64,000 nucleotides of DNA from Caballeronia turbans (GTDB lineage Bacteria > Pseudomonadota > Gammaproteobacteria > Burkholderiales > Burkholderiaceae), in the NCBI GenBank assembly GCA_001544655.2, contig FCOD02000002.1, positions 418,244 through 482,243 on the forward strand, read 5' to 3'. Below are positions 8,354 through 24,427 of the stretch, piece after piece. Positions within the stretch are counted from its first letter, which is position 1; every line of letters starts with the position of its first letter. Below the pieces are notes generated by a model that saw only the letters and a list, made by a program, of their open reading frames with translations, had not been told where the DNA came from and did no database searches. The position numbers and the translations under genes were made by a program.

Positions 8354-9280
8354 TCACTCGTCGATATCGGCGTCGCTGAATCCGGTGGGGTCTTCCTTCG
8401 CGGCTTCGGTGAACATCGACGTGAACTGGTCGAGTGTGGCGAGCGTGTCGCGCCCGGTTCGCGTGATGCGATAAAACGAAAGCGGAACTTCGGGCCGCAA
8501 CGCGTCGACACGCACCCTGTAGCGGTAGCAGATATGTTCGCAGAAGGAAGGCATGACCGCGGTGCCGAGCCCTTCCTGCGCCATCGCGATGGCTGTCTGC
8601 AAGTGACCCACGACGATGCGGCGGCTCACGGTCACTTCCTCTTTCGATAGTGTCGCCTCGATGAGCCGTTGCAGCGGATTGTCCTTCGGCAGCGTGATGA
8701 GCGGCTGATTCTCGAGCGCGGTCCAGCGCATGCCGGAGCCGCGCAGCGGCGCGCCTGCCTGCGCGGGCGATACGGCGACGAGCCGCGTCGGGAAGATCGG
8801 CGTGCGGTCGATGCCGGAAAGCTGTGAGAAGAACACGCCGAACGCGGCGTCGAGATGGCCTTCCTCGACCATCTGCACGAGTTCGGTCGGATTGCGGTCG
8901 ACGAGTTCGATCTGCGCGTTCGGATAGACATTCGAAAAGCGCGCGAGCACCGAGGGCATGAGGCTCGCTGCGATCATCGGCGTGCAGCCGAGCAGCAGCG
9001 ACGATTGTTTCTGACGCCCCAGCTCGTTGAGTTCGATGACCGATTTCTCGAGCGACTCGACGATCGCCATCGCGGTGGGATAGAACAGGCGGCCGGCTTC
9101 GGTCAGCGAGACCGTGCGCGTGGTGCGTTCGAGCAGACGGCAATCGAGCTGCGTTTCGAGTTCACGAATGATCGCGGAAAGCGCCGCCTGGCTGAGATGC
9201 ATGCTCTGCGCGGTCTTCGTGAAGCTCGACGCATTCGCGACGCCAAGAAAAACCTTGAGTTGCTTGAGGGATAGATTCAT
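8354..9280 (-). CDS. LysR-family transcriptional regulator of the catabolic locus
   Basis: A 308-residue protein. The N-terminal winged helix (LKQLKVFLGVANASSFTKTAQ, SQAALSAIIRELETQLDCRLL, then TVSLTEAGR) is canonical LysR. The effector domain runs from about residue 90, with LLLGCTPMIAASLMP and LPKDNPLQRLIEATL. The start ATG 9280 (MNLSLKQLK) is clear from the family; the open frame continues upstream to 10573 only as a shadow over the UbiD gene. It is the last gene in the minus-strand order and probably controls the locus, with an aromatic or heterocyclic acid as likely inducer. Confidence 0.93.
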   Translation of the reverse strand: MNLSLKQLKVFLGVANASSFTKTAQSMHLSQAALSAIIRELETQLDCRLLERTTRTVSLTEAGRLFYPTAMAIVESLEKSVIELNELGRQKQSSLLLGCTPMIAASLMPSVLARFSNVYPNAQIELVDRNPTELVQMVEEGHLDAAFGVFFSQLSGIDRTPIFPTRLVAVSPAQAGAPLRGSGMRWTALENQPLITLPKDNPLQRLIEATLSKEEVTVSRRIVVGHLQTAIAMAQEGLGTAVMPSFCEHICYRYRVRVDALRPEVPLSFYRITRTGRDTLATLDQFTSMFTEAAKEDPTGFSDADIDE

Positions 9281-9384
9281 CGACGACGGCCGTTTGTTTT
9301 TCGGGCGTGGAGCATGCCCGATTCTATCCCGTCCGCAGCAGCGGCTGCCGCACCGCGGGACTTTCCGGTGCGACAGCCCGTGCG

Positions 9385-10950
9385 TCACGCAAGGACGTAG
9401 CGGCCTTCCTCGTCCCGTGTGATCGCGCGCCGTTGCGCCGTGTCTTCGAGCCAGCGGACCACTTCGCGGCCGTCGCGCGTGCCGGTCGCGGCCATCAGTT
9501 CGGAAAAGCGCTTCGGTCCGTCTTCGAGCGCCGCTTCGAGCGAGTCGAAGCGCGCGCCGCGATACGCGGGCGGCGTCGGCACGCGATGCTCGAGATCGCG
9601 CTCGGCGCCCGGCGCGAGCAACGGCAGCGTGAGATCGAAGCCGGCCTTCGCCGTTTTCGTCGCGCCGAGCAGCGACGGGTCGAGCGGCATCGCGCGCAGG
9701 CTGTCCTGGAGCACCAGATCGCGATCGGCCTGAAAGCGCGTGGCGAGCGCCCAGTCCATCTGCTCGTCCGAGAACACGTCGATGTCGGGATCGACCACGA
9801 AAACATGCTTCACGTTTGCAAGCGATGCGAACACGGCCGCGATCGCGTTGCGCGCCTCGCCCGGCACGCGCTGCTGCATCGCGACGCGCACGTTGAACAT
9901 GCCGCCGGTGGCCGGGTTCGCATAGACGGCCTTCACTTCGCGCACGGCGGTTTCGAGCGCGCGCCACACCGTCACTTCGGTGCGCAGCGCGGCGAGCTGC
10001 GCGGTATCGGTGCGCGCCATCGAGCGGCCGCCGATCGTGCACGTCTGAAAGACTGCGTCGCGCCGATGCGTGATCGCGGTCAGATGGAACAGCGGATTCG
10101 TCTTCACGCCGCCGTAATAGCCGAGGAATTCGCCGTACGGGCCTTCGGGCTCGGCGTGGCCGCGCTCGTCGAGATAGCCTTCCAGGATGAACTCGGCGTC
10201 GGCGGGCACGAGCAGGTCGTTCGTCACGCACTTGACCACGCCCATCGGCGCGCCGCGCAGCGCGGCGACGAGTTCGAGCTCGTCGGCGGGAATGCGCATG
10301 GTCGCGCCGACATGATCGACCGGATGCGTCCCGACGGCGAATGCGATCGGGGTACGCTCGCCGCGCTTCGCGTGGCCGATGGCGATGGCCCGCAGATCCG
10401 ACGGCGCGACGAGATCGATGCCCGCCGTGCGGCGCCCGCGCAGCATCAGGCGGCGAATGCCGACGTTGGTCCAGCCCGTGTCCGGATCGACGGCGAAGTC
10501 GATCGACGCCGAAATGTACGGCGCGCCGTCGAGATCGTGCTGGAGATGCACGGGCAGGGCGGTGAAGTCGCACGCGTCGCCGGTGAGCACGACTTGCTGC
10601 GCGGGTGCTTCCTCACGGCTCACTTCGACGAGCTTGCCTTTCACGCGCAGGCGTTCGCGCACGGTGTCGAGCAGTCGCTGCGGCGTCGTATCGAACGCCT
10701 TGGCGAGACGCGATCGGCTCGCGGCGACGCTGCCCGCGAGCGACACGGCGCCGCCGGACGGCCGCCTGAACCACACGGCGCGCGGGTTGCCTTCCATGAT
10801 GCCGGCGATGTCGGCGAGATCGACGGACGCGTCATGGCGTTCGAGTTCGCTCTCGTCGAGCGATTCGAGGAAGCGGCGCAGGCGGAAGCGTTCGAGGTCG
10901 GGCGCGGGCGTGCCATCGACGGTCGAAGGAATGGCGGTGTTGGGTCTCAA
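9385..10950 (-). CDS. UbiD-family prenylated-FMN-dependent decarboxylase (TTG start)
   Basis: A 521-residue protein starting at TTG 10950 with AAGGA six bases upstream; the first real ATG is further in. UbiD enzymes reversibly decarboxylate unsaturated or aromatic acids using prenylated FMN. The active-site blocks are visible: TNVGIRR (about 161-167) and EGPYGEF (about 269-275), giving Arg167, Glu269 and Glu274 by hand alignment with the family. A metal-site His appears replaced by Asp185. The partner UbiX is encoded at the other end of the same locus. It lies between the enoyl-CoA hydratase-like gene and the LysR gene. The substrate is unknown. Confidence 0.9.
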   Translation of the reverse strand: MRPNTAIPSTVDGTPAPDLERFRLRRFLESLDESELERHDASVDLADIAGIMEGNPRAVWFRRPSGGAVSLAGSVAASRSRLAKAFDTTPQRLLDTVRERLRVKGKLVEVSREEAPAQQVVLTGDACDFTALPVHLQHDLDGAPYISASIDFAVDPDTGWTNVGIRRLMLRGRRTAGIDLVAPSDLRAIAIGHAKRGERTPIAFAVGTHPVDHVGATMRIPADELELVAALRGAPMGVVKCVTNDLLVPADAEFILEGYLDERGHAEPEGPYGEFLGYYGGVKTNPLFHLTAITHRRDAVFQTCTIGGRSMARTDTAQLAALRTEVTVWRALETAVREVKAVYANPATGGMFNVRVAMQQRVPGEARNAIAAVFASLANVKHVFVVDPDIDVFSDEQMDWALATRFQADRDLVLQDSLRAMPLDPSLLGATKTAKAGFDLTLPLLAPGAERDLEHRVPTPPAYRGARFDSLEAALEDGPKRFSELMAATGTRDGREVVRWLEDTAQRRAITRDEEGRYVLA

Positions 10951-10996
10951 TCTGGGTTCCTTGATGCTTGGGGGTGACGGCGCACGTGCGCCGTCC

Positions 10997-11722
10997 TCAG
11001 AAGCGCGCGGAAAGCGCTGTCGCCGCGAGATGCGCGGCAAAGCCGCTCGCACCGTTCGCCGGCATTTCGGGCGCGAGATGCAGGAACTGCTTCACCGCGC
11101 GCAGCGTGACCGCGCTGCAGCCGAGCAGCGTGTCGGCGAGCGCGTCCGCTTCGGCGTCCAGGTTCGCCGCCGGCACGACACGGCTCACGAGCCCGGCGTG
11201 CAGCGCTTCGCTCGCGGACAAGCGCACGCGGCTCAGCACCATGTGTGCGACGGTTTTCAACGGCACGCGGCCGATCAGCGCCGACATCACGAGCGTCGGC
11301 GGAATGTCGCGTTCCATTTCGGGGATCTGGAACACGGCATCGTCGGACGCGAGCGCGATGTCGCACACGCCCGCGAGCGCGCAGCCCACGCCGAGCGCAT
11401 TGCCGCGCACGACCGACGCCACGGGCACGCGCACGGCCTTGAGCGCGTCGTAGAGCGCGAGCGGCGGCGCGGCGACCACGCGGCGCAGCGTTTCGGCGGA
11501 CGGCTTCGCGTCCTTCGGCGGCATCGGCGAAAGGCGGCCCTTGCAGAAGTCGGGGCCGCTCGCGAGGATGCGCACGAGCTTCACATCGTCGTCGAGCGTC
11601 GTGATGCATTCGATGATCGTCTCGCTCATCGGCGCGTCGATCAGATTGCCGTTTTCGGGATGGTCGAGGACCACGTCCACGAGCGGGCCGTTGCGGCGGA
11701 TCGCAACGTGAGGGCTTGTCAT
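10997..11722 (-). CDS. Enoyl-CoA hydratase/isomerase family protein
   Basis: A 241-residue crotonase-fold protein. Oxyanion-hole segments are SGPDFCKG (about 58-65) and GNALGVGCALAG (about 105-116). The usual second catalytic-Glu region reads IPEMERDIPP, not the common PE-x-x-LG-IPG. The start ATG 11722 has AAGGAGA six bases upstream; an ATG at 11749 is possible but weaker. It lies between the molybdenum hydroxylase large subunit and UbiD. Crotonase-fold members also act as C-C hydrolases or lyases, so a CoA substrate is likely but not proven. Confidence 0.85.
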   Translation of the reverse strand: MTSPHVAIRRNGPLVDVVLDHPENGNLIDAPMSETIIECITTLDDDVKLVRILASGPDFCKGRLSPMPPKDAKPSAETLRRVVAAPPLALYDALKAVRVPVASVVRGNALGVGCALAGVCDIALASDDAVFQIPEMERDIPPTLVMSALIGRVPLKTVAHMVLSRVRLSASEALHAGLVSRVVPAANLDAEADALADTLLGCSAVTLRAVKQFLHLAPEMPANGASGFAAHLAATALSARF

Positions 11723-11745
11723 GCCGGTCTCCTTGTCGAGCGTGT

Positions 11746-14079
11746 TCATGCGTCGCGGTGGATGAATTCCCACACGACTTTCGGCGTGGCGGGCATCGCG
11801 AGTTCGTCGGTGCCGTATTCGCTGAGCGCGTCGGCGAGCGCGTTGAAGATCGTCGCCGTGGCGGGCGTGATGCCGCTCTCGCCGCCGCCCTTCACGCGCA
11901 GCGGATTGCCGTGGGTCGGGTCTTCGGTCAGTTCGAGGTTGAGTCGGGGAATCACGCCTGCGCGCGGCATGCCGTAATCCATGTACGAGCCGCTCAGCAC
12001 CTGGCCCGTTTCGCGATCGACATAGCAGGTTTCCGACAGCGCCTGTCCGATACCCTGCGCGAGACCGCCGTGCACCTGGCCTTCGACGATCAGCGGATTG
12101 ATCGGCTGGCCGACATCGTCGACCGACGTGTAATTGACGAGCTTCACGACGCCCGTGTCCGGGTCCACTTCGAGTTCGCACACGGCCGCGCCCGTCGGAT
12201 GCGCGGGGACACGCGTGTTCACTTCGGCCTCGGCGTACAGCGTGCGCTTGGCGCGCTCGCCCGGCAGACCGTCGCGCGCGACGTGGGCGGCCACCTCGAA
12301 GAGGCCGATTTCACGCGATGAAGCTGCATCGGAAAACACGCCGTTAGCGAAGCTCACGTGCTCCGGCGCGACATCGAACAGCTCGGCTGCGACGCGCTTG
12401 CCGAGCATCACGATCTGCGCGGCGGTATCGACGAGCAGCATGCCGCCGAGGCGCATCGAGCGGTCCGAATGACTGCCGCCGCCCACGCTCACGAACGCGG
12501 TATCGCCGGTGCGCAGCGCGATCGACGCGATCGGCACGCCGAGATGCTGCGCGATGACCTGCGCAAACGTCGTTTCGTGGCCCTGGCCGGTGGACTGCGT
12601 ACCGGACACGATATCGATGCGGCCTTCCGGCAGCACGGTCAGTTCGATGCGCTCGCGCGGCGCGCCCACGGGCGACTCGACGTAGTTCGCAAGCCCGATG
12701 CCGCGCAGCATGCCGTTCGCGCGCGAGGCGGCGCGCCGCGCCTCGAAGCCGTCCCATTGCGCGAGCTCGAGCGCGCGCGCCATGTTGCGCGCGAATTCGC
12801 CGCTGTCGTAGGTGAGGCCCATCGGGCTGCGGTACGGCAGCTTCTCGTGCGCGATCAGATTGCGCCGGCGGATCTCCGCGCGGTCGAGGCCGAGCTCCGC
12901 CGCCGCGAGGTCGAGCATGCGCTCGATCACGTGCGTCGCTTCGGGGCGGCCCGCGCCGCGATAGGGCGCGGTCGGCACGGTGTTGGTCATCACCGCGCTG
13001 ATGTGCACGGCGGCGAGCGGCACGTCATAGACGGTCGTCATGATGCGCGTGCCATTGGACATTGGCACATAGGACACCGTATGCGCGCCGACATTGCCGA
13101 TCCATTCGTTGTCGATGGCGAGGATGCGGCCGTCCCGCGAAAAACCGAAGGTGGCGCGCACGATCTGGTCGCGGCCCTGATAGTCGGAGAGGAACGCTTC
13201 GCTGCGATCGCTCGTCCACTTCACCGGCCGGCCGATGCGGCGCGCGGCCCACACCACGGCAAGCTGCTCGACGTAGATGAACGAACGCGGGCCGAAGCCG
13301 CCGCCCGTGTCGGGACAGACGACGCGAACCTGTGACGGCGGCACCTTGAGCGCGGCGGCGAGGCAGAGCTTTTGGCGCACGGCGCCCTGGCTGCCGGAGA
13401 TCAGCGTGTAAGCGCCGCTTTCGGCATCGAACACGCCGATCGCGGCGCGCGGCTCCATCTGGCAATTCACGACGCGGCTGTGATGAAACTCGCGCGTGAG
13501 GACGAACGGCGCATCCGCGATGATGCGGCGCGCTTCGTTGCGATCGCCGATCTGCGTCTGGAAGCACAGGTTGTGCGCCGCGCCCGCCCACAGTCGCGGC
13601 GCGCCTTCCTGCATCGCATCGGCTGCATTGACGACGGCGCCGAGCACGTCGTAATCGACCTCGATCATTTCCGTCGCGTTGCGCGCGGCGAGGGCGGTGT
13701 CGGCGATCACCATCGCGATCGCCTCGCCGACGTAACGCACGCGGTCGATCGGCAGCGGAACATGCAGCTGGTTGAAGATCTCGCCGGTCGATGAAGTCAG
13801 GAAGGCCTTCTTCGTGGCGTCGATAGCATCGATGGGATTGGGCACGTGATCGACGCCCTGAAAGCCGTCGTCGAGATAATCTTGGCCCACGAGCACCGCG
13901 ATCACGCCGGGCGCCTCGCGCGCGGCCGATACGTCGATCGAGCGCAGCGCGGCGTGAGCGTGCGGCGAGCGCAGGAACGCCGCATGAACCTGGCCCTCGA
14001 CGCGCAGGTCGTCGGTGTATTGGCCGTTGCCGGTCACGAAGCGCCGGTCTTCGAGGCGCGGGATGGGTTGGCCGATCAT
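11746..14079 (-). CDS. Molybdenum hydroxylase large subunit (xanthine dehydrogenase/CoxL-like)
   Basis: The 777-residue protein carries the Moco-binding domains of the xanthine dehydrogenase family: [17 protein letters not shown] at the N-terminus, [11 protein letters not shown] (about 265), PYRGAGRPE (about 375), and near the C-terminus GGGESG with the catalytic Glu. The motif PYRGAGR differs from the AYxCSFR of true CO dehydrogenase, so CO oxidation is unlikely. It hydroxylates a ring or CoA-ester substrate using water. The start ATG 14079 overlaps the 2Fe-2S gene stop by 4 bases. Confidence 0.93.
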
Positions 14080-14585
14080 CGTGTGGCGTCCTCGGTGGTG
14101 GCATCGCCGAGCGACGGATACATCGCGTGCGCCGCATGACGCACGGCCTCGATGATGTTCACATAGCCCGTGCATCGGCAGATGTTGCCTTCGAGCGCGT
14201 GGCAGATGCTCTCTTCGTCGAGCGACGGCTCTTGGCGCAGATAGAAGCTCGACGACATGATCATGCCCGGCGTGCAGAAGCCGCATTGCAGGCCGTGGCA
14301 TTGCACGAACGCGTTCTGCACCGGATGCAGCGGAGCATTCTCGTCTTTACGCAACCCTTCGACCGTCGTGACGGCGCCGCCGCTCGCCTGCGCGGCGAGC
14401 ACCGTGCACGACTTCACCGAGACGCCGTCGAGATGCACCGTGCACGCGCCGCATTGACTCGTGTCGCAACCGACATGCGTGCCCGTGAGACGCAGCGTTT
14501 CGCGCAGAAACTCGACGAGCAACGTCTCGTCGGGCACTTCGCGCGTCACGTCCTCGCCGTTCACCCGTAGTTGGATTTCAGCCAT
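14076..14585 (-). CDS. (2Fe-2S) small subunit of molybdenum hydroxylase
   Basis: A 169-residue protein. The plant-type ferredoxin domain carries [15 protein letters not shown], and the second cluster domain carries [13 protein letters not shown] and later [11 protein letters not shown]. These are the eight ligand Cys of the xanthine dehydrogenase/CoxS family. It passes electrons from the molybdenum site to the FAD subunit. The gene overlaps the large-subunit gene by 4 bases and follows the CoxG-like gene by 12 bases. Confidence 0.96.
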
Positions 14586-14597
14586 GGTTCACCTCGC

Positions 14598-15065
14598 TTA
14601 CTGTGCGGCGGCGGCGCTTGCGTTTGCGCTCATCGTCGCGTTGAAGCGCTTGAAGAACTCCGCCGCGAGCTTGTTCGCCACCGATGTGACGAGGCGCGAG
14701 CCGATCTGCGCGAGCTTGCCGCCTACCTGCGCATCGGCGACGTACGTGAGAAGCGTGCCGCCTTCGTCGGCGTCGGCGAGCGTGACCGTCGCACTCATCT
14801 TTCCGAAGCCCGCGATGCCGCCTTCGCCCTGGCCGAGAATCTTGTAACCGTTCGGGCCGTCGCGCTCCGACAGCAAGAGCGTGCCCTTGAAGCGCGCCTT
14901 GACGGGTCCGACCGACGCGATCACGACGGCCCTGTACTCGTCGTCGTTTTGTGCGACGAACTCTTCGCAGCCGGGCACGCATGCCTGCAGCACCGCGGCA
15001 TCGTTCAAGCCCTTCCATACCTGCTCGCGCGAGGCGGCAATGGTTTGCGATCCGGTGAACTCCAT
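14598..15065 (-). CDS. CoxG-like SRPBCC protein
   Basis: A 155-residue START/SRPBCC-fold protein matching the carbon monoxide dehydrogenase subunit G family: MEFTGSQTIAASREQVWKGL at the start, LQACVPGCEEF, and GGKLAQIGSRLV with KFFKRF-like FFKRFN near the end. CoxG proteins are not catalytic; they aid maturation or membrane attachment of molybdenum hydroxylases. The gene lies between the FAD subunit and the 2Fe-2S subunit genes, as expected for a dedicated helper. Confidence 0.92.
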   Translation of the reverse strand: MEFTGSQTIAASREQVWKGLNDAAVLQACVPGCEEFVAQNDDEYRAVVIASVGPVKARFKGTLLLSERDGPNGYKILGQGEGGIAGFGKMSATVTLADADEGGTLLTYVADAQVGGKLAQIGSRLVTSVANKLAAEFFKRFNATMSANASAAAAQ

Positions 15066-15086
15066 GTCTTGTCTCCTGAAAACGGT

Positions 15087-15905
15087 TTAGGCGGGCTGGC
15101 GCAGCGGCTGCGCCAGCAGCGCCAGCAATGCGCGGCGCGTGTAGGTTTCGATCAGATGGGCGCGATACGCGGACGAGCCGTTGGCGTCGTCGGGCAGGGT
15201 GGCGGCATCCATCTTCAGCGGGATGAGCGCGGCTTCGGACAGATCGACGGCAAGCGCGGCTTCGGCCTCGAGCCAGCGGAACACCGACGCGCCCGCGCCC
15301 GTCACCGCGACGCGAATCGCATCCGCGAACTGCGCGATGAACACGCCCACCACGGCATAACCGGACGCCGGCTGGCGGAACTTCGCATAGGCGGCGCGCA
15401 ACGGAAGCGGATACTCGAATTCGGTCACGAGCTCGCCGGGTTCGAGCGCGGTCTCGAAGGTGTCGACGAAGAAATCGTCGGCGCCGATGCGGCGCTGCGA
15501 AGTGAGCACCTGTGCGTTGAGCGCGAGCACGGCGCTCGGATAATCGGCGGCGGGGTCGTTGTTCGCGACCGAGCCGCCCATCGTGCCGCGGTTGCGCACT
15601 TGCGGATCGGCGATCACGCTCGCGAGTTGCGCGAGCGCGGGGATCGCCGCGATCACCACGGGCGAAGCGGCCACTTCCGCATGCTTCGTCAGCGCGCCGA
15701 CGCGCAGCACGCCGCTTTCGACGCTCACGCCGCGCATCGACTCGATGCGCGTGAGATCGATCAGATGCGAAGGCGCGGCGAGACGCTGCTTGAGCGTGGG
15801 AACCAGCGTCATCCCGCCGGAGAGCGGCCGGGCGTCCTCGTGTTCGCGCAGCAGGCCGAGCGCTTCATCGAGCGAGGACGCGCGCAGGTAAAGGGTTTCG
15901 TACAT
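15087..15905 (-). CDS. FAD-binding subunit of molybdenum hydroxylase (CoxM-like)
   Basis: A 272-residue protein of the xanthine dehydrogenase FAD family. FAD-contact motifs are LSGGMTLVPTLKQRL (about 29-43) and NRGTMGGSVANNDPAADYP (about 106-124). The C-terminal CO-dehydrogenase flavoprotein domain follows (YAKFRQPASGYAVVGVF). It delivers electrons to an unknown acceptor. It is the first of the four linked hydroxylase genes in transcription order and lies 24 bases after the alpha/beta hydrolase gene. Confidence 0.95.
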   Translation of the reverse strand: MYETLYLRASSLDEALGLLREHEDARPLSGGMTLVPTLKQRLAAPSHLIDLTRIESMRGVSVESGVLRVGALTKHAEVAASPVVIAAIPALAQLASVIADPQVRNRGTMGGSVANNDPAADYPSAVLALNAQVLTSQRRIGADDFFVDTFETALEPGELVTEFEYPLPLRAAYAKFRQPASGYAVVGVFIAQFADAIRVAVTGAGASVFRWLEAEAALAVDLSEAALIPLKMDAATLPDDANGSSAYRAHLIETYTRRALLALLAQPLRQPA

Positions 15906-15929
15906 GAAGTCTCCCGCGGCCGGTGGCCG

Positions 15930-16697: not shown

Positions 16698-18040
16698 GCC
16701 GCAACCTCCGTTGGCCGCGGCACGAACGCCGGCGCAATGCGCCCGCGACATTCGCCGAAGCCGATCGACACCGCGCCCGGCTTCGTCGCGCGCGCGCTCA
16801 ACACGATTTCGTCGCCGTCTTCGAGCGCGGTGCGTGTCTCGCCGTTGGGCAGGCGAAGCGGGTCGCGGCCGGCGTTGGTGAGTTCGGTGAGGCAGGCGCG
16901 CGCGGCATCGTCCGCGCCGGAAATCGTGCCGCTGCCGAGCAGGTCGCCCGCGCGCAGATTGCAGCCGTTGCTCGTGTGATGCGCGACCATCTGCGCAAAC
17001 GTCCAGTACAGATTGTCGAGATGCGTTTTCGTGATGCGCAGGTCCGCGGCGCCGGCTTCGCGCAACTGGCGCGTCGACAAATGCGCGTGCAGTTCCAGAT
17101 GCAGCCCGCCTTGCTGCCGATCGCGCGCGCCATGCAGATGCGGCATGACGGGCGGATCATCCACGGCGCGCGCGACCGGCGCTTTGCGGAACGGCGCGAG
17201 CGCCTCCGACGTGACGATCCACGGCGACACGCTCGAATGAAAGCTCTTGCCGAGAAACGGACCGAGCACTTGTTCGAACCACTGGATGCTTTTTGCGGAC
17301 CAGTCGTTGAGCAGCGAATAGCCGAAGATGTGCGCGTGTGCATCGTCGACGGCGATCGGTTGCGTGAACGCATTGCCCTCGCCGATCCACGCCGCCAGCT
17401 CCAGCTCGAAATCGAGCGCGGGCGCGGGGCCGAACACGATCTGCCCGTTCGCATCGCGATACTGGCCGTTCGGACGGCGCACGTCGCCGCCGCTCACGCG
17501 CAGCGACGAAGCGCGGCCGTGATACGCGATCGGCAGCGACTTGAACGCGGGCGGCAGCGGATCGGCGAGGCCCTTGTAGCGGCCGTGGCGCTCGGTGTGA
17601 TGAAGCGACGTGAGAAAGTCGGTGTAGTCGCCGACTTCGCACGGCAGGCGCAGTTCGAGCGTGTCGATGCGCGGCAGCAGGGCGTCGGCTCGTTGCTGCA
17701 TGCGCGCGCGCTGCGGCGCATCGCTTTTCAGCAGATCCGACAGCGCGGCGCGCAAAGCGCTCGCGTAGCGCTGCGGCATCGCCATCAGGCGATTCAGCGT
17801 GCCGTCACGCGTGGCTTCGCAGGCAATCGCCGCATCGCTGCCGGCCGCGAGCAGACCGCTGTCGAAGAGCGCATGCAAGTCCACCGCATGTTCGCCGATG
17901 GCCACGCCCGCACGCGCCGCGCCATCGCGCGAGAACGCGCCGAGCGGCAGGTTCTGGATCGGAAAGTCCGCGTCGGAGAGATTCGCCGAGTCGATCCAGC
18001 TGCGCCGGGCCGGATCATGAGTCGAGTTGAGCGCGGTCAT
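16694..18040 (-). CDS. Fumarylacetoacetase family hydrolase
   Basis: A 448-residue protein that matches full-length FahA. The metal ligands are visible in DYTDFLTS, FELELAAWIG and LLNDWSAKSIQWFE, followed by LGPFLGKSFHSSVSPW with the active-site Lys. FahA splits fumarylacetoacetate into fumarate and acetoacetate at the end of the homogentisate route. No homogentisate dioxygenase or maleylacetoacetate isomerase is present here, so the enzyme may act on a related 1,3-diketo acid made by this locus. It overlaps both neighbours by 4 bases. Confidence 0.92.
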   Translation of the reverse strand: MTALNSTHDPARRSWIDSANLSDADFPIQNLPLGAFSRDGAARAGVAIGEHAVDLHALFDSGLLAAGSDAAIACEATRDGTLNRLMAMPQRYASALRAALSDLLKSDAPQRARMQQRADALLPRIDTLELRLPCEVGDYTDFLTSLHHTERHGRYKGLADPLPPAFKSLPIAYHGRASSLRVSGGDVRRPNGQYRDANGQIVFGPAPALDFELELAAWIGEGNAFTQPIAVDDAHAHIFGYSLLNDWSAKSIQWFEQVLGPFLGKSFHSSVSPWIVTSEALAPFRKAPVARAVDDPPVMPHLHGARDRQQGGLHLELHAHLSTRQLREAGAADLRITKTHLDNLYWTFAQMVAHHTSNGCNLRAGDLLGSGTISGADDAARACLTELTNAGRDPLRLPNGETRTALEDGDEIVLSARATKPGAVSIGFGECRGRIAPAFVPRPTEVAA

Positions 18041-18552
18041 GCGACGCTTTTTCCTTTGCTGGCCCAGGCGTCGAGCGCGGGGCGCGCTTCCCTTCGATAG
18101 GCAGCGAGCGTTTCAGTCGACGCGACGGGCACCGTCAGTTCGAGCCGCAAGCCGTTCGGATCGAAGAAATAGATCGAGCGCACGAAGTGATGATCGGTGA
18201 TGCCAAGCACCTCGATGCCGTGAGCCACGAGACGTTGCTTCATCGTTTCGAGATCGTCGAGCGTGGAAAGGCGCAGCGCGATATGGTTCACCCACGGCGG
18301 CGTGTTCGGCGAAGGCTCTGCGGCCGTTTCGTCGCCGAGATCGAAGAACGCGATGTTCGAGCCGTCCGCCATCTCGAAGAACAGATGCACGTAAGGGCAA
18401 TATTCGCCCGTGCTCGGCACGCGGTCGAGGCGGATCAGATGAACGAGCGGCAGGCCGAGGGTGTCCTCGTAGAAGTGACGCGTTTCTTCGGCATTGCGGC
18501 AACGCCAGGCGAAATGATGCAGGCCGCGCACCGGCGGCAAATGGTCGGACAT
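18037..18552 (-). CDS. VOC-family (glyoxalase/type I extradiol dioxygenase) protein
   Basis: A 171-residue single VOC module pair. Putative metal ligands are in GLHHFAW near the N-terminus, VNHIALRL (about 97-104) and RLELTVP (about 144-150). The start ATG 18552 has AAGGAGA upstream; its stop overlaps the fumarylacetoacetase start. Next to a hydroxylase and a fumarylacetoacetase it is the only visible candidate for a ring-cleaving dioxygenase, but isomerase or lyase activity is equally compatible with the fold. Confidence 0.88.
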   Translation of the reverse strand: MSDHLPPVRGLHHFAWRCRNAEETRHFYEDTLGLPLVHLIRLDRVPSTGEYCPYVHLFFEMADGSNIAFFDLGDETAAEPSPNTPPWVNHIALRLSTLDDLETMKQRLVAHGIEVLGITDHHFVRSIYFFDPNGLRLELTVPVASTETLAAYRREARPALDAWASKGKSVA

Positions 18553-18596
18553 GCTGTGTCTCCTTGAGGCGGCGTGTTGAGGCGAGCTATGCCCGC

Positions 18597-19784
18597 TCAG
18601 ACTTCGATGGCGTCGACGTCGTATTCGAACAGCCAGTTGTAGCGCTCTTTCACGCGCTCCTCGCTCCACTCGCGATCGACGTAATCCGCTGCGCCTTGCG
18701 CATGCGCGAGCGCCGGATTGTGAAAGCGCTTGGTGTTCGCCGCCGAGCCGCGCACGATGCGCGCCGTGCGCTCGAGGCGCAGCGACTCGTAACGTTCGAG
18801 CGCATGCGGCAGATCGTTTGCGTGGCGCGCGAGGCAGCGCGCGATCAGATAACCGTCTTCGAGCGCCATGCCCGCGCCTTGCGCGAGGAACGGCAGCGTG
18901 GGATGACAGGCATCGCCGAGCAAGGTGGCGTTGCCCGAGTTCCAGCGTGGCATCGGCTCACGAATCATGAGCGCCCATTTGTACGGGACGTCGATGGCCG
19001 AGATCATCGTGCGCACGTCTTCGTGCCAGCCGTCGAAATCGGCGAGACATTCGTCGATGGTGCCGCGCTCCGACCACGACTCGACTTGCCAGCCCTCGCG
19101 CTCCACCGCGCCGACGAAGTTGATGAGCTTGTGGCCGCGCAGCGGGTAGTGGATCACGTGGGCGCCCGGTCCAACCCAGTTGGTGCCGTAAGGCGTGCGC
19201 AGATGCTCGGGCAGTTTCGTGGCGTCGATCACGCCGCGCCATGCCATCACGCCCGAATAGACCGGCTCGTCCGCGCCGAAGAGCGCGCGGCGCACGCGCG
19301 AGTGCACGCCGTCCGCGCCGATCAGCAAATCCGCTTCGAAGGGGGCGCCCGAGACGGTCTGCACTTCGACACGCCCGTCCTTCTGCACGATCGACTCGAC
19401 CTTGTGATCGAGCCTGACCGCATCGGGGCTACACGCGCGCACCGCATCGACGAGCGCTTCGTGGAGATCCGCGCGGTGCACGGTCAGATAGGGAAAACCG
19501 TACACTTCGCGCGATGCCGCCCCGAGATCGAAGAGCGGCCAGGTCTGCCCCGTGTTCCAGAGACGCACGCGCTTGCCGGGCGGCTCGCACGCGAGACTTT
19601 CGAGGCGCTCGCCGACGCCGATCCGGTAAAGCACGCGCGTGGCGTTCGGGCTCAGTTGCACGCCCGCGCCGATTTCCCCGAGAGCTTTCGCCTGTTCAAG
19701 GATGGTGACGTCGAAACCCGCTCTTAGTAATGCGGCTCCCGCCGTCAAGCCGCCGATACCGGCTCCTGCAATGACGATCTTCAT
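18597..19784 (-). CDS. FAD-dependent aromatic monooxygenase (salicylate / 3-hydroxybenzoate 6-hydroxylase type)
   Basis: A 395-residue class A flavoprotein monooxygenase. It has GAGIGGL at residues 7-13, the DG motif IGADGVHSRVR (about 160-170), and LLGDACHPTLPFLAQGAGMALED (residues about 285-307), here in two parts. It uses NAD(P)H and O2 to hydroxylate a phenolic or heterocyclic acid. The 194-base gap to ubiX contains three inverted repeats, so this gene likely has its own controlled promoter and starts the enzyme operon. A NicC-like role is possible but the nicotinate genes are absent. Confidence 0.9.
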   Translation of the reverse strand: MKIVIAGAGIGGLTAGAALLRAGFDVTILEQAKALGEIGAGVQLSPNATRVLYRIGVGERLESLACEPPGKRVRLWNTGQTWPLFDLGAASREVYGFPYLTVHRADLHEALVDAVRACSPDAVRLDHKVESIVQKDGRVEVQTVSGAPFEADLLIGADGVHSRVRRALFGADEPVYSGVMAWRGVIDATKLPEHLRTPYGTNWVGPGAHVIHYPLRGHKLINFVGAVEREGWQVESWSERGTIDECLADFDGWHEDVRTMISAIDVPYKWALMIREPMPRWNSGNATLLGDACHPTLPFLAQGAGMALEDGYLIARCLARHANDLPHALERYESLRLERTARIVRGSAANTKRFHNPALAHAQGAADYVDREWSEERVKERYNWLFEYDVDAIEV

Positions 19785-19828
19785 TCGACCTTTCGACCTC
19801 TTTCGTATTGACGCTGTCTCTTATCGAG

Positions 19829-19856
19829 AAGATTTATCATTCGATAGATAAATCTT
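19829..19856. promoter_or_regulatory. Inverted repeat, likely operator upstream of the monooxygenase
   Basis: Perfect 10-bp arms AAGATTTATC / GATAAATCTT are separated by 8 bases centred on TCGA. It lies 45-72 bases upstream of the monooxygenase ATG in an AT-rich gap. Position and symmetry fit a regulator binding site. No run of T follows, which argues against a terminator. Confidence 0.55.
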
Positions 19857-19865
19857 TTAAATGGG

Positions 19866-19885
19866 GTTTCGTTTTAAAACGGAAC
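19866..19885. promoter_or_regulatory. 20-bp near-perfect palindrome, possible operator
   Basis: GTTTCGTTTTAAAACGGAAC is symmetric except for one base pair. It lies 82-101 bases upstream of the monooxygenase start, next to another inverted repeat. A related GGTTCCG element occurs twice upstream of the divergent porin (around 20745-20772), so it may mark a shared regulator. Confidence 0.45.
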
Positions 19886-19934
19886 CACTTTAAAGGAACG
19901 TCATCCGCTAAAGAAGCAAAAGAATTCGAACGAG

Positions 19935-19954
19935 TTATCAATGAAAATTGATAA
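19935..19954. promoter_or_regulatory. Inverted repeat TTATCAAT-N4-ATTGATAA
   Basis: Perfect 8-bp arms with a GAAA loop, 25 bases downstream of the ubiX stop in minus-strand sense. It shares the TTATC/GATAA half-site with the repeat at 19829. It could be an operator or a weak AT-rich hairpin ending the ubiX transcript. Confidence 0.45.
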
Positions 19955-19978
19955 TGCGCGAGCGCACGCGCATGAATC

Positions 19979-20557
19979 TCACATGCCCCAGCGATGCACG
20001 ACCGCGCTTTCGATGCCGAAGAGATCGAGCACGCGCCCGATGGTGTGATCGACCATGTCGTCGAGCGATTCGGGGTTCGCGTAGAATGCCGGCACCGGCG
20101 GATAGACGATTGCTCCGGCTTCGGTCACGCTCGTCATGCTGCGCAAGTGGCCGAGATGCAGCGGCGTTTCCCGAACCATCAGCACGAGCCGGCGGCGCTC
20201 CTTGAGCGTGACGTCGGCGGCGCGCGAAAGCAGGCCGCTCGTCACGCCCGTGGCGATTTCCGAGAGCGTGCGGATCGAGCAGGGCGCGACGATCATGCCC
20301 ATCACAGGGAACGACCCGCTCGAAATCGCCGCGCCGATGTCCGTGTTCGGATAAGTGACCGTGGCGAGCGCGCGAACATCGGCGACGCTGTAGGGCGACT
20401 CGTGCGCGAGCGTGACCTGTGCGGAGCGGCTCATCACCAGATGCGATTCGATGTCGAGCTGCCTGAGCAACTGCAGCAGCCGTACACCGTAGACGACGCC
20501 CGATGCGCCGCTGATGCCCACGATCATGCGCCTGGGCTGTACTGCGCTGAAATGCAT
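19979..20557 (-). CDS. ubiX: UbiX-type flavin prenyltransferase
   Basis: A 192-residue protein. The N-terminal MIVGISGASGVVYGVRLLQLL, the ITGSFPV-like SSGSFPVMGMIVAPCSIRTLSEIATG, and LVMVRETPLHLGHL-type blocks (VLMVRETPLHL) are diagnostic. UbiX joins dimethylallyl phosphate to FMN to make the prenylated FMN used by UbiD. The start ATG 20557 has GGAG upstream. Its presence with a UbiD gene in one locus strongly supports a pFMN-dependent decarboxylation step. The housekeeping ubiX is probably elsewhere, so this may be a dedicated copy. Confidence 0.94.
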   Translation of the reverse strand: MHFSAVQPRRMIVGISGASGVVYGVRLLQLLRQLDIESHLVMSRSAQVTLAHESPYSVADVRALATVTYPNTDIGAAISSGSFPVMGMIVAPCSIRTLSEIATGVTSGLLSRAADVTLKERRRLVLMVRETPLHLGHLRSMTSVTEAGAIVYPPVPAFYANPESLDDMVDHTIGRVLDLFGIESAVVHRWGM

Positions 20558-20855
20558 CTGTGCTCTCCGTTTTAACCGTGATGGAATCAAAACGTCGCGG
20601 ATGTTAGCACGGCGATTCAATCTCCCGGATAACTTATAGGGCTTTTTTGGATCGATCGGTAAAGACCCTGAGTGAATATTCAAGATGTTCTATTGATTGA
20701 TAAATAACTCGTGATTCAAAACGCGAATTGAAGTGGTTAAACTCGGTTCCGCATCGGGCAGAGCGGGTTCCGAACGATGATCCGCAGCACGGTGGGATGC
20801 AGGAAGCCGGCGCCGACGAGCGACCGGCCAACGATAAAAAAATTGGAGACTTCGG
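20558..20855. promoter_or_regulatory. Divergent promoter region, ubiX / porin
   Basis: About 300 bases between divergently transcribed ubiX and porin genes. It is AT-rich around 20670-20740 and contains GATAAAT at 20699-20705 and two GGTTCCG copies near 20745 and 20767, sharing words with the repeats upstream of the monooxygenase. Promoters for both directions must lie here; exact -35/-10 boxes are not obvious. Confidence 0.5.
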
Positions 20856-21947: not shown

Positions 21948-22183
21948 AGACATGGAGGCGTCATCGTGCGATGAAACGGAGTGCAAACGGCGCGCGAACG
22001 AGCGTGCGAGGCGGATTCATCACTTATTTCGATCGCTTCATCGTTTCTTTTTGATTGAGCCGCGCGGGGCCGACTCTTATATTGTCACTCCGGCCACGGC
22101 GCCGTCATGAGAGACATTCAGCAGCAGTGCGAGCGGACGCGCCCGACCGGTGCGTCCGTCCGCACGAGGTACACGGGACATAC

Positions 22184-23569
22184 ATGCAAGCAGACCGGAC
22201 TTTCAACATTGCGACATTGATAGAAGAGCAGAAGACGGGGCGCTTCGCCGCCGGTCTGCTCTTCTGGTGTTTCCTGATCATGCTGATGGACGGCTACGAT
22301 CAGACGGCCGTGTCGTTCGCGGCGCCCGCCATCATCAAGGACTGGCACGTCGCGCGCGGCGGATTCGGACCTGTGTTCGGCGCGGGCCTCTTCGGGACGT
22401 TGATCGGCTCGTTCATCTTCGGCTATCTCGGTGACCGGCTCGGGCGCAAGAAGGCGATCATCATCGGCAGCCTTTTCTTCGGTGCGCTGACCTACGCTTC
22501 GGTGTGGGTGACTTCGCTTCAGGAACTGATGCTGCTGCGCTTTCTGGCCGGCATCGGCATGGGCGGCGTGGTGCCGAATTCGGTTGCGCTGGTCGCAGAA
22601 TATGCGCCGAAGCGCCTGCGCGCCACATGGGTCACGCTGATGTTCTCGGGCTTCTCCATCGGTGCGGGGTCGGGCGGCGTGGTGTCGTCGTCGCTGATTC
22701 ATCGCTTTGGCTGGCCTGTCATGTTCGCGGTCGGCGGCGTCGGCTCGGTGCTCGTTGCGCTGCTGCTGATTTTCATGTTGCCGGAGTCCGCGAAGCTGCT
22801 CGTGCTGCGGCAGCGCGATCCGCAGATGCTGCGCAAACTCATGACGCGCCTGCGCCCCGATCTGAAAATTTCCGCCGATGCGCACTTCGTGGCCGGCGAA
22901 GTGCGCGAGAAACAGCGCTTCGTGCTGAAGCTGATTTTCTCCGATGGTCTCGCAGCCATCACGCCGCTGCTGTGGATCGTGTTCATCGCAAACTCGATGG
23001 CGCTGTATTTCCTGCAGAACTGGCTGCCGATTCTGATGGAGGGCATGGGCATCGACCCGCGCGGCGCGGGGCTCATCACGATGATGTTCTCCGTGGGTGG
23101 CGTGATCGGTGGTCTCGTGCTCTGCCGCTTCGTCGATCGTCATGGTGTCGCGGCGATCATTTCGTTGCCCGTCATCGGCCTTCCGGTCGTCGCGGCGCTC
23201 GGCCACGGCTCGTCGCAGGGCTGGCTCATGCTCGCCGTGTTCGCTACCGGCTTTTGCGTGGTGGGCGCGCAGTACGGGCTCTATGCGGTGGCCGGCATGA
23301 TCTATCCCACGTCGTTCCGCTCGGCGGGTGTCGGCAGTGCGATTTCGGTGGGCAAGATAGGCTCGGTGTCCGGGCCCGTGATCGGCGGCCTGCTGCTGTC
23401 GATGCACCTGCCCGTCACGCAGCTTTTCTATGCGGCCTCGCTGCTGTTCCTCATTGCCGCCGTGTTCTCGACGATCCTCGCGCTGCTTTATCGCGCGCGC
23501 TTCGGCGAACCGCGGAACGTCGAGACGGCCGTCGAACCGGCGCAGGGTTCGCTGGTGCAGGACTCTTGA
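22184..23569 (+). CDS. Aromatic acid:H+ symporter family MFS transporter
   Basis: A 461-residue, 12-helix MFS carrier. The helix-1 motif DGYDQTAVSFAAPAI (residues about 36-50) with paired Asp residues is the AAHS signature, and GYLGDRLGRKK follows helix 2. A second-half PTSFRSAGVG motif is also typical. AAHS members import 4-hydroxybenzoate, protocatechuate, gentisate and similar acids. The start ATG 22184 begins MQADRTFNIATL; the longer frame from 22055 has no support. It lies downstream of the porin and is probably the inner membrane importer of the catabolic locus. Confidence 0.92.
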   Translation: MQADRTFNIATLIEEQKTGRFAAGLLFWCFLIMLMDGYDQTAVSFAAPAIIKDWHVARGGFGPVFGAGLFGTLIGSFIFGYLGDRLGRKKAIIIGSLFFGALTYASVWVTSLQELMLLRFLAGIGMGGVVPNSVALVAEYAPKRLRATWVTLMFSGFSIGAGSGGVVSSSLIHRFGWPVMFAVGGVGSVLVALLLIFMLPESAKLLVLRQRDPQMLRKLMTRLRPDLKISADAHFVAGEVREKQRFVLKLIFSDGLAAITPLLWIVFIANSMALYFLQNWLPILMEGMGIDPRGAGLITMMFSVGGVIGGLVLCRFVDRHGVAAIISLPVIGLPVVAALGHGSSQGWLMLAVFATGFCVVGAQYGLYAVAGMIYPTSFRSAGVGSAISVGKIGSVSGPVIGGLLLSMHLPVTQLFYAASLLFLIAAVFSTILALLYRARFGEPRNVETAVEPAQGSLVQDS

Positions 23570-23590
23570 TCACGTAATCTCGCGGCTCGG

Positions 23591-23621
23591 CGCGCCGCCG
23601 GGCCTTCCGCACGGCGGCGCG
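23591..23621. terminator. GC-rich hairpin after the MFS gene
   Basis: Perfect 10-bp arms CGCGCCGCCG (23591-23600) and CGGCGGCGCG (23612-23621) with an 11-base loop start 22 bases after the MFS stop codon. No T-run follows, so it may be a weak terminator or an RNA-stabilising hairpin. Confidence 0.45.
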
Positions 23622-23845
23622 GCAGATAAATCTCATGGTTGTGGCATCGAAAGGCATGCGACACGGCGTACGCTGCAAGCGCGATGACACTCCGTCAGAA
23701 AGCAATGGACATGAGAAGGCTTCCGAAGTGCTGTGCAACGTTGCAAAAGCACAAGCACCACGCGCCTCCGAACGAACGCGTCGCCCGGCGTGCATTTTGA
23801 ACGCCGCATACAATCACGCGCATTGTCCTTTGCATTCGTAAAACC

Positions 23846-24427
23846 ATGAGCCACTTTCGTCCCGTCAAGCTGGAGCACGCCAGCCGTCTCATCAACCACG
23901 GTCCGACCGTCCTCGTCACCAGCGCACATGGCGGGCGCCGCAACGTGATGGCCGCCGCCTGGTCGATGCCGGTGGAGTTCACGCCGCCGCGCGTCGCCGT
24001 AGTGATCGACAAACACACCTACACGCGCGAACTGGCTGCCGCGAGTGGCACGTTCGGCCTCATCGTGCCCGGCGCCGCGATGATCGACCTCACCTACGCG
24101 GTCGGTTCGACGAGCGGGCGCGAGATCGACAAGTTCGCAGCCTTCGGCATCGAGACGGTAGCCGGGCCGGTGCTCGGCCTGCCGCTCATCGAAACAAACT
24201 GCGCGGCGTGGCTCGAATGCAGGCTCATCGACGAGAAGCACACGGAAGACGCCTACGACACCTGCTTCGCGGAAGTCGTCGCCGCCGCCGCGGATGCGCG
24301 CGTGTTCGTCGACGGACACTGGGTCATCGACGACTCGAACCAGCCGCTGCATACGATTCACCATCTGGGCGCGGGCAAGTTCGTGCGCGCGTCGTCGATG
24401 GAGCAGGCGAAGCCGCTCACGCGCTGA
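23846..24427 (+). CDS. Flavin reductase-like FMN-binding protein
   Basis: A 193-residue protein of the flavin reductase/DIM6-NTAB family: GPTVLVTSAHGGRRNVMAAAW near the N-terminus, then PPRVAVVIDKHTYT and GTFGLIVPG. Such proteins bind FMN and either reduce free flavin for a monooxygenase or act as oxidoreductases. It lies downstream of the porin and importer genes on the same strand, 277 bases away. It could supply reduced flavin to an enzyme of the locus, though the FAD monooxygenase there should reduce its own flavin. Confidence 0.87.
   Translation: MSHFRPVKLEHASRLINHGPTVLVTSAHGGRRNVMAAAWSMPVEFTPPRVAVVIDKHTYTRELAAASGTFGLIVPGAAMIDLTYAVGSTSGREIDKFAAFGIETVAGPVLGLPLIETNCAAWLECRLIDEKHTEDAYDTCFAEVVAAAADARVFVDGHWVIDDSNQPLHTIHHLGAGKFVRASSMEQAKPLTR

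What the first reader, a model, noticed from the sequence alone, without database searches (positions are those of the whole stretch)
8354..24427. Catabolic locus combining UbiD/UbiX, a molybdenum hydroxylase and a phenol-type ring-opening set, substrate unknown
A single locus joins enzymes that rarely occur together: pFMN decarboxylase with its own UbiX, a CoxMGSL-type molybdenum hydroxylase, a class A flavin monooxygenase, a VOC protein, fumarylacetoacetase, an alpha/beta hydrolase and a crotonase-fold enzyme, plus LysR, porin and an aromatic-acid importer. The genes are closely packed and several overlap. Established knowledge: these families decarboxylate, hydroxylate and cleave aromatic or heterocyclic acids. 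Inference: a substrate acid is hydroxylated at the Mo site, decarboxylated, hydroxylated again, ring-opened and hydrolysed to fumarate-like products. The order of steps is a proposal.
Basis: partly seen in the sequence, partly recalled or inferred. Interest (0 to 1): 0.85.

Follow-up and report, generated by a model that had tools for sequence, protein, structure and literature searches.

The report
Decarboxylation-fed route to homogentisate-type ring opening
A conserved block of twelve soil-bacterial genes looks like a complete pathway that strips and oxidises an unknown aromatic acid and then opens its ring with enzymes resembling those that break down homogentisate, the tyrosine breakdown product; it matters because its unknown substrate can now be sought directly.

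Summary
On the minus strand (8354-20557) lie LysR, UbiD, a crotonase, CoxL/S/G/M, an alpha/beta hydrolase, a fumarylacetoacetase, a VOC protein, a flavin monooxygenase and UbiX; a porin and an aromatic-acid symporter diverge. Of 80 loci fetched with UbiD, 26 carry all twelve, mostly Paraburkholderia/Caballeronia. The flavin reductase was not seen at other loci. The ring-opening set is homogentisate-type rather than phenol-type: the VOC protein's best PDB match is titled homogentisate 1,2-dioxygenase (9u42), and relatives sit beside HPPD in six genomes where no HgmA was found. VOC and this FAH co-occur in 31 of 31 loci; in 7 of the other 49, HgmA lies nearby. I conclude: UbiD, Mo hydroxylase and monooxygenase turn an imported aromatic or heteroaromatic acid into a homogentisate-type para-diol; VOC and FAH break it down. 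FAH and VOC differ from tyrosine-pathway relatives at group-specific positions, so the diol may be an analogue. Substrate, step order and the crotonase's role are unproven. My literature searches found no such pathway.

The parts
8354..9280 (-). LysR-type regulator, last gene of the set
   Evidence: HTH_1 and LysR_substrate; start at MNLSLKQL; in the 26 complete loci
9385..10950 (-). UbiD-family prFMN decarboxylase (start uncertain; ORF open to 11052)
   Evidence: PF01977 188.8 bits; closest PDB 6h6v 214 bits; it was the query for the 80 loci
10997..11722 (-). crotonase-fold protein (alternative start 11749) with one of the two usual glutamates
   Evidence: PDB crotonases; E135 and A115 invariant in the aligned relatives (that hydratases carry a Glu at A115 is recalled); model pLDDT 91.7, crotonase fold
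11746..14079 (-). molybdopterin large subunit, CoxL-like
   Evidence: MoCoBD_1/2; motifs and GGGESG glutamate intact
14076..14585 (-). 2Fe-2S small subunit, CoxS-like
   Evidence: translation with cysteine motifs (not scanned against family libraries); conserved in orthologous loci
14598..15065 (-). CoxG-like protein
   Evidence: PF06240 113.6 bits
15087..15905 (-). FAD subunit, CoxM-like
   Evidence: PF00941 158.8 bits
15930..16697 (-). alpha/beta hydrolase; nearest NCBIfam models are PcaD-type enol-lactonases, far below their cut-offs
   Evidence: kept without VOC/FAH in L053 and L100
16694..18040 (-). fumarylacetoacetase-family hydrolase, second copy in the genome
   Evidence: TIGR01266 424 bits; 46% identical to the copy on contig C61; 12 group-specific residues and one gap column
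18037..18552 (-). VOC protein, candidate homogentisate-type ring-cleaving dioxygenase
   Evidence: 9u42, 126 bits, titled homogentisate 1,2-dioxygenase; H13, H90, E138, H121, Y128 invariant in 10 aligned orthologues
18597..19784 (-). class A flavin monooxygenase
   Evidence: PF01494; best NCBIfam 3-hydroxybenzoate 6-monooxygenase, below cut-off; best PDB match NicC 243 bits
19979..20557 (-). UbiX flavin prenyltransferase (start uncertain)
   Evidence: NF004685 267 bits over cut-off 188
20558..20855 (.). divergent region with a shared TTATTTATCAA block, possible operator or promoter
   Evidence: alignment of window with L023, L025, L041, L044
20856..21947 (+). porin
   Evidence: PF13609; in 17 of 18 fetched upstream stretches
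22055..23569 (+). aromatic acid/H+ symporter (MFS; start uncertain)
   Evidence: TIGR00895 361 bits, below cut-off; orthologue in 19 of 19 Burkholderiaceae genomes searched

Best explanation
The locus encodes a self-contained catabolic pathway with two modules. Upstream: the porin and symporter take up an aromatic or benzo-fused heteroaromatic acid; UbiX makes prFMN and UbiD removes a ring carboxylate; the CoxMSL Mo hydroxylase oxidises a ring carbon; the alpha/beta hydrolase may open a lactone-like product; the flavin monooxygenase adds a hydroxyl, probably para to an existing one, giving homogentisate or a close 2,5-dihydroxyphenyl analogue. Downstream: the VOC protein cleaves the para-diol ring, and the FAH cuts the resulting maleyl-type 1,3-diketone to maleate (or fumarate) plus a small keto acid; in some strains a LeuCD-like hydratase beside the symporter could hydrate maleate. 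LysR is taken to control it. Shown: gene content, conservation, the module structure, and the sequence relationship of VOC and FAH to homogentisate enzymes. Inferred: every reaction, their order, the para-diol intermediate, the maleate route. Unassigned: the crotonase.
For: All 12 genes in 26 of 80 loci, 25 of them collinear. VOC: best PDB match 9u42, 126 bits, titled homogentisate 1,2-dioxygenase from Acinetobacter. VOC relatives (38-46% identical) lie beside or near HPPD in six genomes (G806, G711, G599, G474, G720, G623), with FAH and/or MaiA in five of the six; no HgmA match in any of the six. Of 57 HPPD-bearing genomes among 369, 9 of the 11 with VOC lack HgmA, against 17 of the 46 without VOC (Fisher p 0.016). 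VOC and FAH of at least 55% identity co-occur in 31 of 31 loci. HgmA lies in 7 of the 49 loci without VOC and in 0 of the 31 with it, over about four lineages; about 0.17 loci expected for 5-Mb genomes. FMO: nearest NCBIfam is the para-hydroxylating 3HB6H, with a His-x3-Tyr pair aligned to NicC, like the His213/Tyr217 of 3HB6H (PMC5472690, passages). LeuC-like gene in 8 of 18 upstream stretches.
Against: No enzyme activity is shown. At 13 alignment positions the cluster FAHs (29 or 30 of 30) and 6 of 6 tyrosine-type FAHs are each uniform but different; VOC has 18 such positions plus one at the C-terminal end, 31 cluster sequences (at least 93% agreeing) against six HPPD-operon VOCs. So the substrate may not be homogentisate itself, or the differences may only reflect ancestry. 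Six of the 17 genomes with a VOC relative have no HPPD match, and three of those six have HgmA (G548, G769, G780), so weaker relatives (E near 1e-23 to 1e-31) need not be homogentisate enzymes. A gentisate-dioxygenase-like cupin lies in 3 of the 80 loci (L062, L079, L096), so gentisate is a possible alternative hub. MaiA genes were found in all 10 genomes searched, so isomerisation to fumarate is not excluded. VIA-align does not list 9u42 among its 50 rows, and the VOC model is only moderate (pLDDT 73.8). LeuC is missing from 10 of 18 stretches and from the window. The crotonase has no assigned step.
Confidence: 0.6

Rival explanations
1. The locus degrades a benzofuran-type acid: UbiD gives benzofuran, the Mo hydroxylase gives 2-coumaranone, the alpha/beta hydrolase opens it to 2-hydroxyphenylacetate, the FMO makes homogentisate. 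A specific version of the best explanation.
For: Carbon count fits (C9 acid to C8 homogentisate). UbiD is closest in the PDB to the furan decarboxylase HmfF (6h6v, 214 bits), and indole-3-carboxylate decarboxylase clusters with HmfF (PMC8988006, passages). The hydrolase's nearest NCBIfam models are PcaD-type lactonases and it goes with the upstream module.
Against: The HmfF residue reported as key for furan specificity (H297 in PMC7976604, passages; H296 by my hand count) aligns with Thr in the window UbiD. Benzofuran C2 is electron-rich for a Mo hydroxylase (general chemistry, recalled). No role for the crotonase. A homogentisate product would not explain the changed FAH and VOC positions.
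Confidence: 0.12
2. A gentisate-type route: UbiD turns a hydroxyphthalate-like diacid into 3-hydroxybenzoate, the FMO makes gentisate, and VOC and FAH take the place of gentisate dioxygenase and fumarylpyruvate hydrolase.
For: FMO nearest NCBIfam is 3-hydroxybenzoate 6-monooxygenase; FMO relatives lie some 8 kb from gentisate dioxygenase in L110 and about 1 kb from a cupin gene, with an FAH-family gene next to it, in L108; a cupin of that type in L062, L079, L096.
Against: FMO is far below the 3HB6H cut-off (306.7 vs 459). FAH is the long fumarylacetoacetase type and VOC matches an entry titled homogentisate dioxygenase. No role for the Mo hydroxylase.
Confidence: 0.15
3. A nitrogen-heterocycle pathway (pyridine carboxylate type): Mo hydroxylation, decarboxylative FMO hydroxylation as in NicC, ring opening of a dihydroxypyridine, deformylation by the alpha/beta hydrolase.
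For: NicC is the best PDB match of the FMO (243 bits); among CoxL's PDB matches are 6-hydroxypseudooxynicotine dehydrogenase (350 bits) and quinoline 2-oxidoreductase (332 bits), though the best is a CO dehydrogenase large chain (8uem, 436 bits).
Against: The residue that differs between PDB chains 5eow (His) and 8uiq (Gln) is Gln in the window FMO, and a second NicC His is Phe (their roles recalled). The one amidase found beside UbiD (L047) matched no other fetched locus. FAH has no role in that route.
Confidence: 0.08

Closest known systems
Homogentisate (tyrosine) catabolic operon HPPD-HgmA or VOC-FAH-MaiA
   Same: VOC dioxygenase and fumarylacetoacetase pair; HgmA, in some with FAH, found near UbiD relatives in other taxa
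   Different: No HPPD hit in loci L022-L128 and MaiA hits only in L035, L037 and plasmid locus L110; fed by UbiD, Mo hydroxylase, crotonase and FMO; FAH and VOC carry group-specific substitutions
HMF/furoate (Hmf) pathway
   Same: UbiD decarboxylase closest in PDB to HmfF and a Mo hydroxylase in one locus (Hmf gene set recalled)
   Different: No furoyl-CoA synthetase among the twelve genes; HmfF's furan-specificity His not kept; a ring-opening set is added
Gentisate pathway with 3-hydroxybenzoate 6-hydroxylase
   Same: Class A FMO of the same broad group; FAH-superfamily hydrolase (pathway recalled)
   Different: Dioxygenase is VOC, not cupin; hydrolase is long FAH; UbiD and Mo hydroxylase upstream
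Nicotinate (Nic) pathway
   Same: Mo hydroxylase, NicC-like FMO, an alpha/beta hydrolase (pathway recalled)
   Different: Two NicC His residues absent; no amidase in the set; UbiD present

Membership tests
UbiD decarboxylase family | UbiD domain over the curated cut-off | tested here: met
   PF01977 188.8 vs 23.3, TIGR00148 272.8 vs 244.85
UbiD decarboxylase family | conserved E-R-E residues near prFMN | tested here: met
   EPEGPYGEF and NVGIRRL align with HmfF and E. coli UbiD; the motif is named in PMC8988006 passages, which residues form it is recalled
UbiD decarboxylase family | prFMN binding and decarboxylase activity | not testable with these tools
   needs protein
HmfF (furandicarboxylate decarboxylase) | His297 that sets furan specificity | tested here: not met
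   aligned residue is Thr, next to a five-residue gap; role from PMC7976604 passages, whose number is one more than my count on the chain
VOC-type homogentisate dioxygenase (9u42) | near whole-length sequence match | tested here: met
   126 bits, E 8e-36, query residues 9-166 of 172
VOC-type homogentisate dioxygenase (9u42) | His-His-Glu metal triad | tested here: met
   H13, H90, E138 invariant in the cluster and HPPD-operon VOCs; their role as ligands is recalled from the superfamily
VOC-type homogentisate dioxygenase (9u42) | same residues as VOCs of HPPD operons throughout | tested here: not met
   18 positions plus one C-terminal differ between 31 cluster (at least 93% agreeing) and 6 HPPD-operon sequences; whether they line the pocket was not tested
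VOC-type homogentisate dioxygenase (9u42) | ring-cleaving activity on homogentisate | not testable with these tools
   needs protein; the function in the 9u42 title was not checked in a paper
Fumarylacetoacetase | full-length equivalog match | tested here: met
   TIGR01266 424.4 vs 375.3
Fumarylacetoacetase | DWSARD...EY segment (mouse Arg237, Tyr244; numbering and role recalled) | tested here: not met
   Lys, Ser and Glu in the cluster FAHs (29 or 30 of 30) vs Arg, Asp and Tyr in 6 of 6 canonical
Xanthine-oxidase-family Mo hydroxylase | three subunits and catalytic Glu | tested here: met
   CoxL and CoxM by Pfam, CoxS by translation; GGGESG (role of the Glu recalled)
Aerobic CO dehydrogenase | equivalog match of large subunit | tested here: not met
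   TIGR02416 443.5 vs 991.15, although the best PDB match is a CO dehydrogenase large chain, 8uem, 436 bits
3-hydroxybenzoate 6-hydroxylase | equivalog match | tested here: not met
   NF006021 306.7 vs 459
3-hydroxybenzoate 6-hydroxylase | His-Tyr pair for substrate | tested here: inconclusive
   His-x3-Tyr aligned through NicC, not through 3HB6H itself

The most novel reading that the evidence does not exclude
An undescribed aerobic pathway in which prFMN decarboxylation and Mo hydroxylation feed a homogentisate-like, but not homogentisate, para-diol into a dedicated VOC dioxygenase and a re-tuned FAH that hydrolyses the maleyl isomer directly, without glutathione; in alphaproteobacteria the same UbiD works with a Mo large subunit whose iron-sulfur and FAD partners are no longer in the locus.
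Probability: 0.3. Interest if true: 0.7.

Novelty: new variant of a known kind. Interest (0 to 1): 0.52.

Why it matters
If right, a gene set that recurs in Paraburkholderia and Caballeronia is a dedicated route for an aromatic acid that I could not find named in print, and the end of the route is now predicted well enough to fish for the substrate. It also ties a VOC-type homogentisate dioxygenase, which I have seen only as a PDB title of 2025, to genomes that have HPPD but no detectable HgmA, which bears on gaps in the annotation of tyrosine degradation.

Tried and rejected
Phenol/catechol-type ring opening: rejected because the long FAH and the homogentisate-titled best match of VOC point to a para-diol. 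FDCA decarboxylation by UbiD: lowered by loss of the HmfF His. CO dehydrogenase: CoxL far below the NCBIfam cut-offs, though its best PDB match is one. Flavin reductase as a partner: no match at 80 loci or 18 upstream stretches.

Led nowhere: literature searches for this gene set or for UbiD with homogentisate (0 papers; 23 and 25: 10 and 3 listings, none that I recognised as this pathway by title or abstract start); search for a VOC homogentisate dioxygenase paper (10 listings, none on it by title); searches gave listings that I did not follow. FMO in viral contigs (none). FMO relative on the Cupriavidus KK10 plasmid (L109: no annotation, none of my ring-cleavage queries hit). VIA-align of the VOC model gave a general VOC fold with 9u42 not among the 50 rows, so it neither supports nor excludes. 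The crotonase fold search gave ordinary enoyl-CoA hydratases, PaaG and HCHL, no hint of substrate. Family scans of further neighbours showed no shared extra gene.

Errors of mine: the crotonase query and the ECH column used an out-of-frame translation and are void; redone. The LysR, VOC and UbiX starts were a few residues off; reset. Searches ended with script errors; one search printed its position table first, and the segments and the VOC comparison were completed.

Rows dropped before counts: the FAHs of L073, L084 and L091 (cut by locus ends) are not in the canonical group of six; L052 (cut) and L061 (58.7% identity, just under my threshold) are not in the 30; L061 was added for display without recounting the positions. 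L088's CoxL is in two pieces and was not in the motif table. Handles G605, G595, G085, G129, G710, G758, G780, G670, G548 and G769 also have VOC relatives without HPPD next to them in the stretches I searched.


Full report
WHAT IS THERE. The window belongs to a genome of 7.35 Mb whose nearest named UbiD relatives are Caballeronia and Paraburkholderia. Between 8354 and 20557, all on the minus strand, lie UbiX, FMO, VOC, FAH, alpha/beta hydrolase, CoxM, CoxG, CoxS, CoxL, crotonase, UbiD and LysR in transcription order; a porin and an MFS symporter are transcribed divergently. FAH reaches the fumarylacetoacetase equivalog cut-off, UbiD and UbiX their subfamily cut-offs; the FMO, the CoxL models and the symporter stay below theirs. 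CoxS and the window's crotonase were not scanned against the family libraries; they rest on translation and on PDB matches.

CONSERVATION. A scan of genome contigs with UbiD found 254 relatives, of which the best 80 were kept. Of these 80 loci, 26 hold all 12 genes at tblastn E of at most 1e-8, and 25 of the 26 in the same order on one strand; Massilia L048 is rearranged. L024 and L061 miss only UbiX, and L047 misses LysR and FMO (contig or flank ends may explain some misses). The symporter has an orthologue of at least 76% identity in 19 of 19 Burkholderiaceae genomes searched, in 18 of them within about 3 kb of the cluster locus on the same contig and in one on another contig; 0 of 5 other genomes have one. 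In 18 upstream stretches taken from such genomes, the porin was seen in 17, a LeuC-like gene in 8 and an MCP chemoreceptor in 7 by clustering; tblastn finds LeuC in 8, LeuD in 9 and the MCP in 8 of these 18 (families). The window itself has no LeuCD beside its symporter.

THE DOWNSTREAM MODULE. The VOC protein's best sequence match in the PDB is 9u42 (126 bits, listed there only as glyoxalase). Foldseek gives the title of that entry as homogentisate 1,2-dioxygenase from Acinetobacter. I have seen only the title. Gene neighbourhoods, looked at before that title, point the same way. A search of 369 genomes of the class found VOC relatives in 17 (E at most 1e-20). In G806, G711 and G599 the relative sits in an HPPD-FAH-VOC-MaiA row, in G474 between HPPD and FAH, in G720 next to HPPD, and in G623 next to HPPD with MaiA close by. 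None of these six has a PF20510 match. Over the 369 genomes, 57 have HPPD at 1e-60 and 41 have HgmA at 1e-30. Among the 57, both HgmA and VOC: 2; HgmA only: 29; VOC only: 9; neither: 17 (recounted; Fisher p 0.016). The 17 with neither show that absence of HgmA alone proves little, and the species are not independent. Six of the 17 VOC-bearing genomes have no HPPD match, and three of these six have HgmA, so the weaker relatives may do something else.

The FAH is a second copy, 46% identical to one on contig C61, where HgmA also lies. VOC and an FAH of at least 55% identity are found together in 31 of the 31 loci that have either.

A HOMOGENTISATE-TYPE HUB. Of the 49 fetched loci without VOC, 7 hold HgmA within the fetched flank: L051 (Comamonadaceae), L073, L077 and L084 (Beijerinckiaceae), L091 (a MAG titled Rhizobium), L093 (Hyphomicrobiaceae) and L099 (Eremiobacterota); none of the 31 loci with VOC does. 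That is about four lineages by record titles. About 0.17 loci would be expected if one HgmA lay at random in a 5-Mb genome, a rough null that ignores the tendency of catabolic genes to cluster. In L093 HgmA, an SDR gene, FAH and UbiD follow one another on one strand. As a control on ring-cleavage types, gentisate-dioxygenase-like queries hit 3 of the 80 loci and one intradiol query none. So para-diol ring opening is the theme, homogentisate more often than gentisate.

NOT QUITE HOMOGENTISATE. In 30 cluster FAHs against 6 canonical ones, 13 alignment positions (12 residues and one gap column) agree within each group (29 or 30 of 30, and 6 of 6) and differ between them. Eleven of the 13 fall in two stretches, residues 149-165, shortly after the HH pair, and 250-270, where canonical FAHs read DWSARDIQxWEY and cluster FAHs DWSAKSIQ-WFE or similar. 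VOC shows 18 such positions and one more at the C-terminal end (31 against 6 sequences). Either the diol is an analogue, or FAH has changed to take the maleyl isomer directly, which would suit the LeuCD-like hydratase seen in part of the strains, or the differences are ancestral. MaiA genes were found in all 10 genomes searched.

THE UPSTREAM MODULE. UbiD is closest in the PDB to 6h6v (214 bits), which is HmfF (PMC8988006, passages); the next protein, E. coli UbiD, scores 134. The HmfF residue described as key for furan specificity (PMC7976604, passages) aligns with Thr. The FMO is nearest to NicC in the PDB and to 3HB6H in NCBIfam; it keeps a His-x3-Tyr pair but not two NicC His residues (their roles recalled). 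3HB6H para-hydroxylates with a Tyr-His pair (PMC5472690, passages). The alpha/beta hydrolase is kept without VOC and FAH in L053 and L100, so it more likely works before ring opening; it is absent from L051 and L064. The crotonase keeps one glutamate (E135) and has Ala where hydratases carry the second (that position recalled); 39 of 80 loci have a match to it, one of them (L099) at only 25% identity, and some, such as L094 and L096, have little else of the set. I cannot give it a step. No CoA ligase is among the twelve genes; an AMP-binding enzyme lies beside the weak crotonase match in L099, so a CoA step is not excluded.

A SIDE FINDING. CoxL without a CoxS match appears in 18 of the 80 loci; L072 and L076 lie at contig ends, which leaves 16. 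In Neorhizobium petrolearium (L106) UbiD, CoxL, crotonase and FMO follow one another with no CoxS or CoxM annotated in 37 kb, though that gene table is incomplete. In the 16 solo proteins aligned (15 loci and L106), the glutamate of the C-terminal GE motif and the other motifs checked are kept with small changes.

MOST LIKELY WORKING. Uptake; prFMN decarboxylation; Mo hydroxylation; perhaps lactone opening; para-hydroxylation to a homogentisate-type diol; VOC ring opening; FAH hydrolysis. Only the gene content, conservation and family relationships are shown. The substrate is open; benzofuran-type acids, hydroxyphthalate-type acids and pyridine acids were weighed as rivals and none is well supported.

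NOVELTY. Every enzyme family is known. The combination was not found in the papers searched (open-licence PubMed Central papers only; I saw listings and abstract starts, and read passages of four papers). I rate it a new variant of a known kind.

Noticed in passing
L060, L073, L074, L077, L078, L081, L082, L084, L086-L092, L097, L106: Xanthine-oxidase-family large subunit beside UbiD with no CoxS match near it; motifs kept in the 16 aligned (L088, in two pieces, was not aligned).
   Followed up: partly
L133-L138, L150-L152, L156: VOC relatives next to HPPD, with FAH and/or MaiA in five of six genomes, all six without a PF20510 HgmA match: candidate homogentisate dioxygenase of tyrosine catabolism there.
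   Followed up: yes
L053:12833-18551: Limnohabitans locus: an ORF the size of a Mo large subunit and a CoxS-like gene beside a kynureninase-family and a cyclase-family gene.
   Followed up: no
L046, L050, L054-L057, L059: Pigmentiphaga, Alcaligenaceae and Burkholderiales loci with UbiD next to a TctC-type binding protein but no match to the other genes of the set.
   Followed up: partly
window 20558-20855: TTATTTATCAA block shared upstream of UbiX in the five aligned loci, Cupriavidus L041 included; possible operator or promoter.
   Followed up: partly
   Followed up: partly
L047:11637-13148: Amidase gene just downstream of UbiD in Massilia sp. PDC64; no match in the other fetched loci.
   Followed up: no
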